DNA of 64,000 nucleotides, from assembly GCF_900095705.1 (NCBI RefSeq), contig NZ_LT608327.1, positions 558,001 to 622,000 on the forward strand. The letters run 5' to 3'. The notes under the pieces were generated by a model, which saw only the letters and a list, made by a program, of their open reading frames with translations, was not told where the DNA came from and searched no databases. Shown in pieces: positions 32,553-37,932 of this stretch (its first letter is position 1; every line of letters starts with the position of its first letter). A program made the translations under genes and the position numbers. This stretch comes from Fusobacterium massiliense. Lineage in GTDB: Bacteria > Fusobacteriota > Fusobacteriia > Fusobacteriales > Fusobacteriaceae.

Positions 32553-33521
32553 ATGGCAAATATTTTTACAGATTATAAAATTAAAAATATACATATAAAA
32601 AATAGAATTGTTTTACCTCCAATGGTTAGATTTTCTCTTGTTTCTGATGATGGCTATGTAAATGATAACTTGATAAAATGGTATGGAATGATAGCTAGAA
32701 GTGGTGTTGGTCTTATAATAGTTGAGGCATCTGCAGTTGAAGAGAGTGGAAAATTAAGAAAAAATCAAATCGGTATTTGGGACGATAAATTTATGGATGG
32801 ACTTAGTAGAATTGCAAAAGAAATACATAAATATGATGTTCCTTGTATGATACAAATTCATCACGCCGGTTTCAAAGAAGAAATTAATAATGTTCCAGAA
32901 GAAGAATTAGATAGAATACTAAAATTATTTGAAGTAGCTTTTGTGAGAGCCAAAAATTGTGGATTTGATGGCATAGAAATTCATGGAGCTCATAAGTACT
33001 TAATATCTCAATTAAATTCAAAAATTTGGAATAAAAGAACAGACAAATATGGTGAACATCTATACTTTTCAAGAAAATTAATTGAAAATACTAAGCATTT
33101 ATTTAATGATAATTTTATATTAGGATATAGAATGGGGGGAAATGAACCAGAACTTGAAGATGGAATAGAAAATGCCAAACTTTTAGAAAGTTACGGTATA
33201 GATATACTTCATGTATCTAGTGGAGTTCCTAATCCAGACTATAAAAATCAATTAAAAATTAATTCTTATCCAAATGATTTTCCTGAGAGTTGGATAATAT
33301 ATATGGGAACAGAAATTAAAAAATATGTAAATATTCCTGTTATAGGAGTAAGTAAAATAAAAAAAGAAAAACAAGCTAGTTGGCTTGTCGAAAATGATTT
33401 ATTAGATTTTGTTGCTGTTGGTAAAGCAATGATATCTCAAGATAAATGGATGGAAAAAGCAAGAAAAGAGTATAATAGAAGAATTATAGAAAAAGAAAAG
33501 GAGAAATTAAAAAATGAATAA
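32553..33521 (+). CDS. Old-yellow-enzyme-type NAD(P)H:flavin oxidoreductase
   Basis: A 322-residue FMN-binding TIM barrel. The N-terminus (FTDYKIKNIHIKNRIVLPPM) is typical of the OYE family. QIHHAGF and the catalytic pair in FDGIEIHGAHKYLISQ follow. The phosphate-binding strand is seen in VNIPVIGVSKIK and LLDFVAVGKAMISQ. There is no iron-sulphur C-terminal extension like that of 2,4-dienoyl-CoA reductase. Such enzymes reduce activated C=C bonds; the physiological substrate is unknown. It overlaps the next gene by 8 nt. Confidence 0.88.
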   Translation: MANIFTDYKIKNIHIKNRIVLPPMVRFSLVSDDGYVNDNLIKWYGMIARSGVGLIIVEASAVEESGKLRKNQIGIWDDKFMDGLSRIAKEIHKYDVPCMIQIHHAGFKEEINNVPEEELDRILKLFEVAFVRAKNCGFDGIEIHGAHKYLISQLNSKIWNKRTDKYGEHLYFSRKLIENTKHLFNDNFILGYRMGGNEPELEDGIENAKLLESYGIDILHVSSGVPNPDYKNQLKINSYPNDFPESWIIYMGTEIKKYVNIPVIGVSKIKKEKQASWLVENDLLDFVAVGKAMISQDKWMEKARKEYNRRIIEKEKEKLKNE

Positions 33522-34314
33522 TATTTTAAATTATTGTATAGTCGTAAAGCAACAAGAAAATGGGAAATTTTTAATTACTTATCCAGATTTTGAAGGTATT
33601 TCAAGTATAGCTGAAACAGAAAAAAGTATACAAGACATTGCTAAATCAACTTTAAAATTAAAATATGAAGAATTAAAGAAAAATAATCTTGAAATTAAAG
33701 AACCTTTAAAAATATCTGAACTATCTAGGAATTTAAAAAGTGGGGAATTTATAATGAATATTTCTTTTCAACCTAGTTTTGATTTTAAAAAATTAGCTGA
33801 TAGCCTAAAAGATACTCAAGTTGTTAAAGAAAAAGTTAAAAATGTTATTGATGGAGATATTAAAGAAAAATTTAATAATACCCCAGTAAGAACTTTAGGT
33901 ATTACAGCCGGAGTAATTTCAATACTAAATACACTACTTTTTTCTTTAGTCGTAATTAAAGTCCCATTTTTTGGTAATTATAGTGTCAACTTCTTTAAAG
34001 GTCTAGGAGAGCTAGCTCAAATTAGTAGCGATATCAAAAAACTTAACATTTTGTTATTACTATCTGGTTTTATATTCCTTGCTATAGCAGGGCTTATAAT
34101 TTTTTCTAGTTTACAATCTAAAAAAAATATTTTTAAGTATTCAACTTTTTCTCATATAGCTTTTTTTATATTATTTTATATAGTTTTATTTATAAAGATT
34201 CCAAATGATGCTAGTAAATTTATTTCAATTTCAGCTTTAAAAATATTTATTTATATAATTTCTTCTGGATTAGCATTTTATACATACAAGAGAATGATGA
34301 AATATGAAAAATAA
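33514..34314 (+). CDS. HicB-like domain fused to a four-span membrane domain
   Basis: A 266-residue protein of unknown function. The first 65 or so residues (YCIVVKQQENGKFLITYPDF then ETEKSIQDIAKSTLKLKYEE) match the layout of the partial-RNase-H-like HicB antitoxin domain. A polar linker follows, then four hydrophobic segments at about 126-150, 176-198, 209-228 and 238-257. No HicA-type toxin is adjacent and no HTH is visible, so a toxin-antitoxin role is not supported. The gene overlaps both neighbours (8 and 11 nt) and must be co-translated with the OYE enzyme and the YwqK-like protein. Confidence 0.75.
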   Translation: MNNILNYCIVVKQQENGKFLITYPDFEGISSIAETEKSIQDIAKSTLKLKYEELKKNNLEIKEPLKISELSRNLKSGEFIMNISFQPSFDFKKLADSLKDTQVVKEKVKNVIDGDIKEKFNNTPVRTLGITAGVISILNTLLFSLVVIKVPFFGNYSVNFFKGLGELAQISSDIKKLNILLLLSGFIFLAIAGLIIFSSLQSKKNIFKYSTFSHIAFFILFYIVLFIKIPNDASKFISISALKIFIYIISSGLAFYTYKRMMKYEK

Positions 34315-35191
34315 AATGTTAGGTAAAAAAAAATTTATAGGATTTTTAGCCTTATTTTTAATTATTTTTATTGCTTTTATTTATTATAAAAATACTAGCT
34401 CATACTCACAATTTATTGAAGAAAAAGATAAACAAGTAAAAAGGACTGAATGGAAAAATTCTATTCTTGAAAGTATCAAAAAAAATGATTTTGCCCAAAC
34501 TGATAAAAAATCATTATATGAACAAGTAATATCTCTTATTACAAAAGAAGAATTCTATCACTTTAAATCTAAAGTTGATGATGATAGGACTATAATAGTT
34601 GAAACTAAAGATAATACTTTAAGACAACAAGTTTTTGTTGATGATAAAATAGCTATATTATTAGAATTTACTGCTAATAAAGATTTTAGTGATTATAATT
34701 TGCTTATCACAGACTATAATACAAATAAAATTGAAACTTATAACAATTTAACTAGCAATAGTGGTACTGGACTTATTGAATTTAAAAATGGAAATAAAAT
34801 AGAATTTTTACACAATAAGGGAATTATTAATGGAGAAGCGAAGCTTTATTTTACAAATGGGGATATAGAAATTTTTAATTACTTTCATGGAGAAAAAATA
34901 GGAAAAGCTATTAAATTCTATAAAAATGGAGATAAAGAAATATATAGTTACTCAAAAAATGAAACAAAAAATGGAAAATCTGTGTATTATTATTCAAACG
35001 GAGATATAGAAGAAGTTAATTATTATAATAGTGTCTTAAATGGACTTGCTAAATATACTTATTCAGATGGTTTTACTGAAGAATATATGTATGTAGATGG
35101 AAAAAGAGTAGAAGAAGATAAAGAAAAAAAGAAACTTGAAATAGAGGAAATTGAAGGAAAGGAAGTTGAAGAATCTTATGAGATTAGATAA
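34304..35191 (+). CDS. Membrane-anchored YwqK/MORN-variant repeat protein
   Basis: A 295-residue protein with an N-terminal anchor (about residues 8-27). An alpha/beta region follows (about 35-150), then at least four roughly 20-residue repeats of the MORN-variant type. The repeats include NGEAKLYFTNGDIEIFNYFH, IGKAIKFYKNGDKEIYSYSK, NGKSVYYYSNGDIEEVNYYN and NGLAKYTYSDGFTEEYMYVD. The Glu/Lys-rich tail is likely unstructured. Such repeats appear in proteins labelled YwqK antitoxin-like, but no toxin is beside it. It probably faces the periplasm. It overlaps the next gene by 14 nt. Function is unknown. Confidence 0.78.
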   Translation: MKNKMLGKKKFIGFLALFLIIFIAFIYYKNTSSYSQFIEEKDKQVKRTEWKNSILESIKKNDFAQTDKKSLYEQVISLITKEEFYHFKSKVDDDRTIIVETKDNTLRQQVFVDDKIAILLEFTANKDFSDYNLLITDYNTNKIETYNNLTSNSGTGLIEFKNGNKIEFLHNKGIINGEAKLYFTNGDIEIFNYFHGEKIGKAIKFYKNGDKEIYSYSKNETKNGKSVYYYSNGDIEEVNYYNSVLNGLAKYTYSDGFTEEYMYVDGKRVEEDKEKKKLEIEEIEGKEVEESYEIR

Positions 35192-35894: not shown

Positions 35895-36263
35895 ATGAAA
35901 AAAATTTATTTATTACTTTTGGCTACCGTAATACTAGGTAATGCATGTACTATTGGTTTAGGAACTTCTTTTGGTTTAGGTGGTAGTGGTATCTCTATTG
36001 GAACATCTGCTAGTAAAAATATAAGTTTAAACAATAAAAAAGAAACTAACAAAAATGATGAAATAAAAGAAATTAAAAAAGAAGAAGCAAATATATCTGA
36101 AAATATACAAAATGAAAATACTCATGCAAATATTAATGAATCTAATGACATAAAAAGTGAAAACAAAAAAAAAGAAAATAAAGAAAATATTGTCAATAAA
36201 AGTTCAAAATCAATAAAAGAAGATAATATAAAAAAAAGACATAAACAAGAAAGACAAAATTAA
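35895..36263 (+). CDS. Small low-complexity lipoprotein candidate
   Basis: A 122-residue protein with an N-terminal hydrophobic signal followed by LGNAC, a weak lipobox (Cys18). A Gly/Ser-rich stretch follows (about 21-40), then a Lys/Glu/Asn-rich tail that is almost certainly disordered. The ribosome site AAAGGAAG is present and codon use matches its neighbours. It lies between the pseudouridine synthase and earP, with only a 2-nt gap to earP. I do not recognise a family and the tail composition makes homology searching hard. Confidence 0.65.
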   Translation: MKKIYLLLLATVILGNACTIGLGTSFGLGGSGISIGTSASKNISLNNKKETNKNDEIKEIKKEEANISENIQNENTHANINESNDIKSENKKKENKENIVNKSSKSIKEDNIKKRHKQERQN

Positions 36264-36265
36264 AA

Positions 36266-37321
36266 ATGAATATAAATAGTGTTGATATTTTTTGTGAAGT
36301 TATTGATAATTATGGAGATGTTGGTGTAGCTTATAGGTTTGCAAGAGAATTATTTAGAGTTTATCCAAATAAAAAAATTAGATTTATTGTAAATAAAACA
36401 TCTGAAATAAATTTAATAAAGAAATCTGATTACATTCCAATTTTTACTTTTGATGAAATTAAAAGTCTTAACAAACCTGCTGAGCTTGTTATAGAAACTT
36501 TTGCTTGCAATATTCCAGAAAATTATATGAGTAAAATAAGAAATTCTAAAAAGAAAACTTTAATCATTAACCTTGAATATTTTTCTTGTGAAGAATGGGT
36601 GGATAGTTTTCATTTACAAGAATCTTTTATGGGAGAAAATATAAAAAAGTTTTTCTACATTCCAGGTTTATCTGAAAAAAGTGGTGGTCTTATTTTAGAT
36701 AAAGAATTTTTGGAAAGAACTCAAAATGCTAAGAAAAATAAAAAAAATATCTTGTTAGAACTAGGTTTTAAAGATGATTATGATATCATTGGTTCAATAT
36801 TTTCTTATGAAAAAAACTTTGATATTTTTATTGAGTATTTAAAAAAATTAAATAAAAAAATTCTATTATTTATTTTAAGTGAAAAAACTCAAAAAAATTT
36901 TATAAAATATTTTGATAATAATGATTATTATGATAAAATAGAATTTGTTAAATTACCTTTTCTCACTTATGATAAATACGAAGAACTTTTAGCTATATGT
37001 GATTTTAATTTTGTTAGAGGTGAAGATAGCTTGGGGAGAGCACTATTGTTAGGAGTTCCATTTTTGTGGCACATCTACCCTCAAGAAGAAAATATACATC
37101 TACAAAAATTAAATAGCTTTTTAGAATTATATTGTCCAAATGATATGAAATTGAAAAAAGAATTTTTAGATTATAATTTAAATAAAAATAATTTTTCATA
37201 TTTTTTTGAGAATTATGATAAAATAAAACATCATAATATAGAATATAGCAAGTATTTAATAAAAAACTGTAATTTAATAGATAAATTTAAAACATTTATA
37301 GAAAATATAGGAGGAAATTAA
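36266..37321 (+). CDS. earP: EF-P arginine rhamnosyltransferase EarP
   Basis: EarP transfers rhamnose from dTDP-rhamnose to Arg32 of elongation factor P, activating it to rescue polyproline-stalled ribosomes. The 351-residue protein opens with VDIFCEVIDNYGDVGVAYR, where Asp14 and Asp18 match the catalytic aspartates of proteobacterial EarP. The C-terminal nucleotide-sugar site appears as VRGEDSLGRALLLGVPFLWHI with QEENIH. It ends 2 nt before efp, and that EF-P has Arg at position 32, so enzyme and substrate are adjacent and match. The ribosome site is weak. Confidence 0.93.
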   Translation: MNINSVDIFCEVIDNYGDVGVAYRFARELFRVYPNKKIRFIVNKTSEINLIKKSDYIPIFTFDEIKSLNKPAELVIETFACNIPENYMSKIRNSKKKTLIINLEYFSCEEWVDSFHLQESFMGENIKKFFYIPGLSEKSGGLILDKEFLERTQNAKKNKKNILLELGFKDDYDIIGSIFSYEKNFDIFIEYLKKLNKKILLFILSEKTQKNFIKYFDNNDYYDKIEFVKLPFLTYDKYEELLAICDFNFVRGEDSLGRALLLGVPFLWHIYPQEENIHLQKLNSFLELYCPNDMKLKKEFLDYNLNKNNFSYFFENYDKIKHHNIEYSKYLIKNCNLIDKFKTFIENIGGN

Positions 37322-37323
37322 TA

Positions 37324-37887
37324 ATGAAAATTGCACAAGAATTAAGAGCAGGAAGTACAATTAAAATAGGAAATGACCCTTTCGTTGTACTTAAAGCTGA
37401 ATACAACAAGTCAGGAAGAAATGCTGCTGTTGTAAAATTTAAAATGAAAAATTTAATATCAGGAAATATGACAGATTCTGTTTATAAAGCTGACGACAAA
37501 ATGGACGATATTAAATTAGACAAAGTAAAAGCTATTTATTCGTATGAAAATGGAGGATCTTATGTATTCTCTAACCCAGAAACTTGGGAAGAAATTGAAT
37601 TAAAAAGCGAAGATTTAGGAGATGCCCTAAATTATCTTGAAGAAGGAATGGAATTAGAAGTTGTTTACTATGAATCAACTCCAGTTGCAATAGAATTACC
37701 AACTTTCGTTGAAAGAGAAATTACTTACACTGAACCTGGATTAAGAGGAGATACTTCTGGAAAAGTTATGAAACCTGCTAGAATTAATACAGGATTTGAA
37801 ATTCAAGTTCCTTTATTCGTTGAACAAGGAGAATGGATTAAAATAGATACTAGAAACAACGAATATGTTGAAAGAGTAAAGAAATAA
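37324..37887 (+). CDS. efp: Elongation factor P (Arg32 type)
   Basis: EF-P binds between the P and E sites and promotes peptide-bond formation at proline runs. The 187-residue protein has the family's three beta-barrel domains. The loop tip that reaches the peptidyl-transferase centre reads NKSGRNAA, with Arg32 at the site that carries Lys in other EF-P types. The third domain has the GLRGDTSGKVMKPA signature, and the terminus reads IKIDTRNNEYVERV. It sits 2 nt after earP and is followed by a strong terminator. Confidence 0.97.
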   Translation: MKIAQELRAGSTIKIGNDPFVVLKAEYNKSGRNAAVVKFKMKNLISGNMTDSVYKADDKMDDIKLDKVKAIYSYENGGSYVFSNPETWEEIELKSEDLGDALNYLEEGMELEVVYYESTPVAIELPTFVEREITYTEPGLRGDTSGKVMKPARINTGFEIQVPLFVEQGEWIKIDTRNNEYVERVKK

Positions 37888-37904: not shown

Positions 37905-37932
37905 AAAGAGGGATTTTTAACCCTCTTTTTAT
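37905..37932 (+). terminator. Intrinsic terminator after efp
   Basis: An 8-bp perfect stem (AAAGAGGG / CCCTCTTT) with an 8-nt loop, followed by a T-rich tract, 17 bases past the efp stop. It ends the 29509-37887 run. Confidence 0.9.

What the first reader, a model, noticed from the sequence alone, without database searches (positions are those of the whole stretch)
33514..35191. Two overlapping membrane genes with antitoxin-like domains but no toxin
The first joins a HicB-like N-terminal domain to four membrane spans; the second is a membrane-anchored protein with YwqK/MORN-type repeats. Both domain types are often labelled antitoxin, yet no HicA or other small toxin is present. The two genes overlap by 11 nt and are embedded in a housekeeping run. 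This may be an unrecognised membrane-associated system in which a HicB-like fold senses or binds something at the membrane.
Basis: partly seen in the sequence, partly recalled or inferred. Interest (0 to 1): 0.62.

Follow-up and report, generated by a model that had tools for sequence, protein, structure and literature searches.

The report
Membrane-anchored HicB-fold protein with MORN partner
Fusobacteria carry a protein in which the toxin-blocking half of a known antitoxin (HicB) is welded to a membrane anchor and always sits beside a MORN-repeat envelope protein, with no toxin gene nearby; the old antitoxin fold seems to have been reused for some job at the cell envelope.

Summary
Gene C (33514-34314, 266 aa) has a HicB-fold head (residues 1-86) and four predicted membrane spans. 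It overlaps gene A (34304-35191, 295 aa; one span plus MORN repeats) by 11 nt, inside a co-directional housekeeping run.

The HicB call rests on Pfam PF15919 hits in six orthologues (all below cutoff), hhalign 98.7% to ordinary HicBs, and an AlphaFold domain model (pLDDT 86) whose 18 best PDB matches are HicB-type. The head stops where HicB's ribbon-helix-helix normally starts; the membrane part replaces it.

In 389 genomes the full protein occurs only in two species of the window's genus and four species of two other Fusobacteriaceae genera. A Fusobacterium vincentii record also has it. A MORN gene is always within one gene. In the other genera the order is reversed and two lipoproteins complete a four-gene operon. 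One species lost only the HicB head.

HicA is absent from five of these seven genomes; in the other two it has its own HicB. This is not a HicAB toxin-antitoxin system. Best reading: an exapted HicB head on an inner-membrane protein of an envelope complex. Its ligand and role are unknown.

The parts
33514..34314 (+). Gene C: HicB-fold head plus 4-TM inner-membrane protein, 266 aa; start overlaps the preceding oxidoreductase gene by 8 nt
33514..33771 (+). HicB-like N-terminal domain (residues 1-86; strand-strand-strand-helix-strand), predicted cytosolic
   Evidence: PF15919 E=4.9e-5; hhalign 98.7%; AF2 pLDDT 85.7 and Foldseek to 6g1c TMq 0.73, prob 1.00
33772..33900 (+). Charged linker (residues 87-129) at the position where ordinary HicB has its ribbon-helix-helix DNA-binding domain
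   Evidence: alignment A9
33901..34275 (+). Four transmembrane spans (residues about 130-254); K/R-rich loop between TM2 and TM3, conserved PFFG in the loop between TM1 and TM2; predicted N-in/C-in
34304..35191 (+). Gene A: single N-terminal TM anchor plus periplasmic MORN-repeat protein, 295 aa; overlaps C by 11 nt
34763..35119 (+). Tandem 23/24-residue MORN repeats (residues about 154-272)
   Evidence: lag-23 identity 26 vs 7.9 +/- 2.7; PF02493 above cutoff in orthologues

Best explanation
C is an inner-membrane protein whose cytosolic head is a HicB-fold domain cut off from its DNA-binding tail and reused as a protein-binding or assembly module. C and A form an inner-membrane complex: the head faces the cytosol, and A's MORN repeats (plus two lipoproteins in the four-gene version) face the periplasm. 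The likely role is to couple or position an envelope complex, not to neutralise a HicA toxin. Shown: domain make-up, conservation of the pair, a four-gene operon in other genera, absence of HicA, and natural loss of the head in one species. Inferred: topology, physical interaction between C and A, and the coupling role. The ligand of the head is unknown.
For: HicB fold by sequence and structure. The head ends at strand 4, where ordinary HicBs continue into the KKTLTIPSWLN ribbon-helix-helix. C and A adjacent in the same place in the window's genus and within one gene, in reversed order, in two other genera. Two predicted lipoproteins, B and D, give strong full-length matches only in the four genomes with that operon. 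No HicA in G000, G002, G021, G029 or G079; in G001 and G032 HicA lies beside its own ordinary HicB. G002 keeps the TM part and A but lacks the head. Positive-inside pattern puts the head in the cytosol and MORN in the periplasm (established rule). Purifying selection.
Against: No direct evidence of interaction or function. Each single-protein PF15919 hit is below Pfam's gathering score. The TM part matches no family convincingly, so no function can be read from it. A's N-terminal half is hardly conserved between genera, so A orthology there rests on position, anchor and repeats. Loss of the head in G002 shows the head is dispensable at least there.
Confidence: 0.55

Rival explanations
1. Membrane-tethered antitoxin: the head still binds HicA-fold toxins, supplied in trans (for example by phages or plasmids), and the membrane anchor holds or sequesters them.
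For: The HicA-binding fold is intact in prediction, with best matches to HicB chains including those from HicAB complexes 4p78, 6g26 and 6hpb.
Against: No HicA in five of seven genomes; in the other two HicA has its own HicB. Association with MORN and lipoproteins is unexplained. No homologue in phages; only one Fusobacterium record in the plasmid collection.
Confidence: 0.12
2. A new toxin-antitoxin pair in cis: the 4-TM part is a membrane toxin held in check by its own HicB head or by A.
For: Small two-gene overlapping unit; both domain types carry antitoxin labels in databases.
Against: G002 has the TM part with no HicB head and keeps it, so the head is not a needed inhibitor. In the window's genus the pair sits at one conserved chromosomal locus, unlike mobile TA modules. 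Relatives have four genes, not two. The type II survey PMC2701414 (2009) reports that no type II system with a membrane component had been detected.
Confidence: 0.08
3. Neutral coincidence: a lineage-specific domain fusion with no shared function, and a MORN gene nearby only because MORN genes are abundant in fusobacteria.
For: MORN proteins are expanded in Fusobacterium (PMC12940168); several MORN loci per genome; low conservation of A's N-terminal half.
Against: Association holds in all eight genomes or records examined and in two different gene orders across three genera; B and D co-occur strictly; purifying selection.
Confidence: 0.15

Closest known systems
HicB antitoxin of HicAB type II toxin-antitoxin systems (PF15919; structures 6g1c, 5yrz, 4p7d)
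   Same: N-terminal partial RNase H fold with the PDFEG signature, strand-strand-strand-helix-strand order, full-length alignment through strand 4.
   Different: No RHH or HTH DNA-binding domain; four TM spans instead; no HicA partner; paired with a MORN protein; confined to Fusobacteriaceae in the genomes searched.
MORN-repeat proteins (PF02493; related MORN_2/YwqK) of fusobacteria
   Same: 23/24-residue MORN repeats behind an N-terminal export or anchor segment, as in the expanded fusobacterial MORN proteins (PMC12940168).
   Different: Fixed neighbour of the HicB-TM protein, overlapping or nearly so in the window's genus; an inner-membrane anchor rather than a cleaved signal is assumed from hydropathy.
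Panacea-domain toxin-antitoxin systems (PMC8832971)
   Same: A precedent for one antitoxin domain being reused with many partners (abstract only read).
   Different: A different domain, paired with separate toxins. Here the antitoxin fold is fused to the membrane part and no toxin is seen.

Membership tests
HicAB type II toxin-antitoxin system | HicB N-terminal partial RNase H fold | tested here: met
HicAB type II toxin-antitoxin system | Adjacent small hicA gene (dsRBD-fold ribonuclease, about 60 aa) | tested here: not met
   no PF07927 match in the whole window genome nor in G002, G021, G029, G079; no room for a separate ORF, C abuts the oxidoreductase gene and overlaps A
HicAB type II toxin-antitoxin system | C-terminal RHH or HTH DNA-binding domain (autoregulation) | tested here: not met
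   replaced by linker and four TM spans
HicAB type II toxin-antitoxin system | Neutralises a toxin | not testable with these tools
   needs experiment
HicAB type II toxin-antitoxin system | Mobile, patchy, found on phages and plasmids | tested here: inconclusive
   fixed locus in the window's genus, different locus and order in other genera; no phage homologue; the one 'plasmid' hit is a 2.1-Mb record
MORN-repeat protein (PF02493) | Tandem repeats of about 23 residues matching PF02493 | tested here: met
   above gathering score in orthologues; periodicity in the window copy, whose own Pfam score is 15.6 bits, below cutoff
YwqK-family antitoxin / MORN_2 (PF07661) | MORN_2 repeat match | tested here: not met
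   no PF07661 hit in the window protein; E=0.051 in F. vincentii

The most novel reading that the evidence does not exclude
A previously undescribed fusobacterial envelope system (4-TM protein, MORN protein, and two lipoproteins in its full form) that uses a captured HicB head as a cytosolic sensor or docking module, so that a cytosolic ligand controls an envelope complex.
Probability: 0.25. Interest if true: 0.7.

Novelty: new variant of a known kind. Interest (0 to 1): 0.5.

Why it matters
Antitoxin folds are used to annotate toxin-antitoxin systems; here is a conserved case where the fold has left that role, lost its DNA-binding half and gained a membrane anchor. A species that lost only the HicB head is a natural control. 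The pair is present in Fusobacterium vincentii, of the F. nucleatum group, for which transposon mutagenesis and RNA maps exist, so its role can be tested directly, and it gives one fixed partner to a member of the large, unexplained fusobacterial MORN family.

Tried and rejected
HicAB system with a distant or missed HicA: PF07927 searched over whole genomes, absent in the window genome. Known defence system: PADLOC gives nothing convincing for the four proteins. Known family for the 4-TM part: Pfam and NCBIfam give only weak, mutually inconsistent hits; a profile of the TM part alone finds no convincing relatives outside this family in 98 Fusobacteriota genomes. Phage or plasmid origin: no viral or phage homologue. 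B and D equivalents in the window's genus: no credible match. Full-length AF2 model without alignment: too poor (pLDDT 54.5) to interpret the TM part. Papers: no report of a HicB-membrane fusion found, which is weak evidence because the library is open-access only.

Full report
What was checked. The two reading frames are at the stated coordinates and overlap by 11 nt (33514-34314 and 34304-35191). They lie in a co-directional run: coaBC, two chromate-transporter halves, an FMN oxidoreductase, C, A, an RsuA-type pseudouridine synthase, a small lipoprotein, earP, efp, then a strong terminator-like site at 37905-37928 (coaBC, chromate transporter and efp named by eye from the translations). The window comes from a Fusobacteriaceae-type genome of 1.8 Mb; a relative in the same genus is a Fusobacterium sp..

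Protein C. Residues 7-81 match HicB_lk (PF15919, E=4.9e-5, 23.9 bits against a cutoff of 27) and PHROG_497 HicB-like (E=5e-7). PF15919 appears in six members of the family, including the very divergent G032 protein, always over the same N-terminal stretch (E from 4.9e-5 to 0.08). A profile of five such heads aligns to a profile of ten ordinary HicBs over 87 columns with 98.7% probability. An AlphaFold2 run without any alignment already gives strand-strand-strand-helix-strand, and its best PDB matches are HicB chains. With an alignment that includes ordinary HicBs the domain model reaches pLDDT 85.7 and pTM 0.73, and the first 18 PDB matches are all HicB or HicB-like chains (6g1c_B TM 0.73/0.84). 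The second model is not independent of the HicB assumption; the first is.

What replaces the DNA-binding half. In the alignment with phage-borne HicBs the head runs through strand 4 (GEFIMNISF against NEFVVIIEF) and ends just before the KKTLTIPSWLN ribbon-helix-helix segment. There C has a charged linker and four hydrophobic spans. The TM2-TM3 loop is rich in K/R and nearly free of acidic residues in all members, which by the positive-inside rule puts the head and the C terminus in the cytosol (inference).

Protein A. One N-terminal span after a lysine-rich start (so N-in, rest periplasmic, inferred), a variable region, and 23/24-residue repeats (lag-23 identity 26 against 7.9 +/- 2.7 shuffled). 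Orthologues exceed Pfam's cutoff for MORN PF02493. The window copy itself scores below it.

Distribution. Full HicB-4TM proteins occur in G000 and G001 (window genus), G021, G029 and G079 (genus g8) and G032 (genus g13); G002 (window genus) has only the TM part. A wider set of 389 genomes in 292 genera gave no more. Fusobacterium vincentii SB055 has the pair at the same locus (52% identity over 98% of C; overlap 29 nt). Other HicB hits in the phylum that I inspected are ordinary HicBs of about 90-140 aa, often beside a HicA of about 60 aa.

The pair as a unit. In the window's genus and F. vincentii the order is oxidoreductase - C - A - rsuA. In G001 the junction falls at a contig end; C ends contig C2 and A begins contig C27, followed by rsuA, so adjacency there is inferred. 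In g8 and g13 the order is A - B - C - D, in unrelated surroundings, where B (about 205 aa) and D (about 240-255 aa) begin with lipoprotein-type signals. B and D give strong matches only in those four genomes. So C and A stay together through an order change and a change of locus. dN/dS between the two closest genomes is 0.05-0.21 for all four genes. C and A diverge faster than their neighbour (53% and 41% against 81% identity, window to F. vincentii).

No toxin. PF07927 (HicA) is absent from G000, G002, G021, G029 and G079. G001 and G032 each have one, next to its own ordinary HicB. In the window genome C is the only HicB-type protein found.

A natural deletion. In G002 the reading frame starts beyond the HicB head, immediately after the oxidoreductase gene, and the TM part and A are kept. 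This argues against the head being an inhibitor of a toxic TM part, and shows the TM-MORN association does not depend on the head.

Mechanism. The best reading is an exapted HicB head on an inner-membrane protein that works with a periplasmic MORN partner, and in some genera with two lipoproteins, in an envelope complex. The steps shown are composition, conservation, co-occurrence and lack of HicA. Topology, complex formation and a sensing or docking role are inferred. Literature on fusobacterial MORN proteins points to export and adhesion or envelope functions, with function unknown (PMC12940168, PMC11005410); no paper found describes a HicB-membrane fusion. HicB's textbook architecture is a partial RNase H head plus HTH or RHH tail (PMC11594946, PMC2701414).

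Limits. Only one F. nucleatum-group record was reachable. Whole-genome handles are a species sample. The TM part is unclassified. No experiment or complex prediction was possible.

Noticed in passing
L046:5746-8700 and L047:5939-8893 with neighbours; L048:6837-8757: In genus g8 the four-gene operon lies beside a type IV restriction-type enzyme (PADLOC mREase_IV, E=8e-191), and in G032 an AbiLi-like ATPase gene is a few genes downstream. The window's genus has no such neighbours, so a defence link is only a hint.
   Followed up: partly
window 35895-36263; L130:11507-11821; L045:9253-9531: A small lipoprotein-like gene of unknown family is kept at the same place after rsuA in the window's genus and F. 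vincentii; it is not related to the B or D lipoproteins by the searches made.
   Followed up: no
window 36266-37887: EarP-type EF-P arginine rhamnosyltransferase (Pfam E=4.9e-91) directly upstream of efp, the same order in G001 and F. vincentii.
   Followed up: no
L130 (NZ_CP084075.1): A 2.1-Mb Fusobacterium vincentii record is labelled a plasmid; it carries the same housekeeping run and is very likely the chromosome.
   Followed up: no
L130:14349-17405: A 1018-aa TIR-like protein lies downstream of efp in F. vincentii, where the window has a TRAP-type solute-binding gene.
   Followed up: no
L045:3171-3722: G002 has an extra gene on the opposite strand that resembles a methylated-DNA methyltransferase, inserted in the otherwise conserved run upstream of coaBC.
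   Followed up: no
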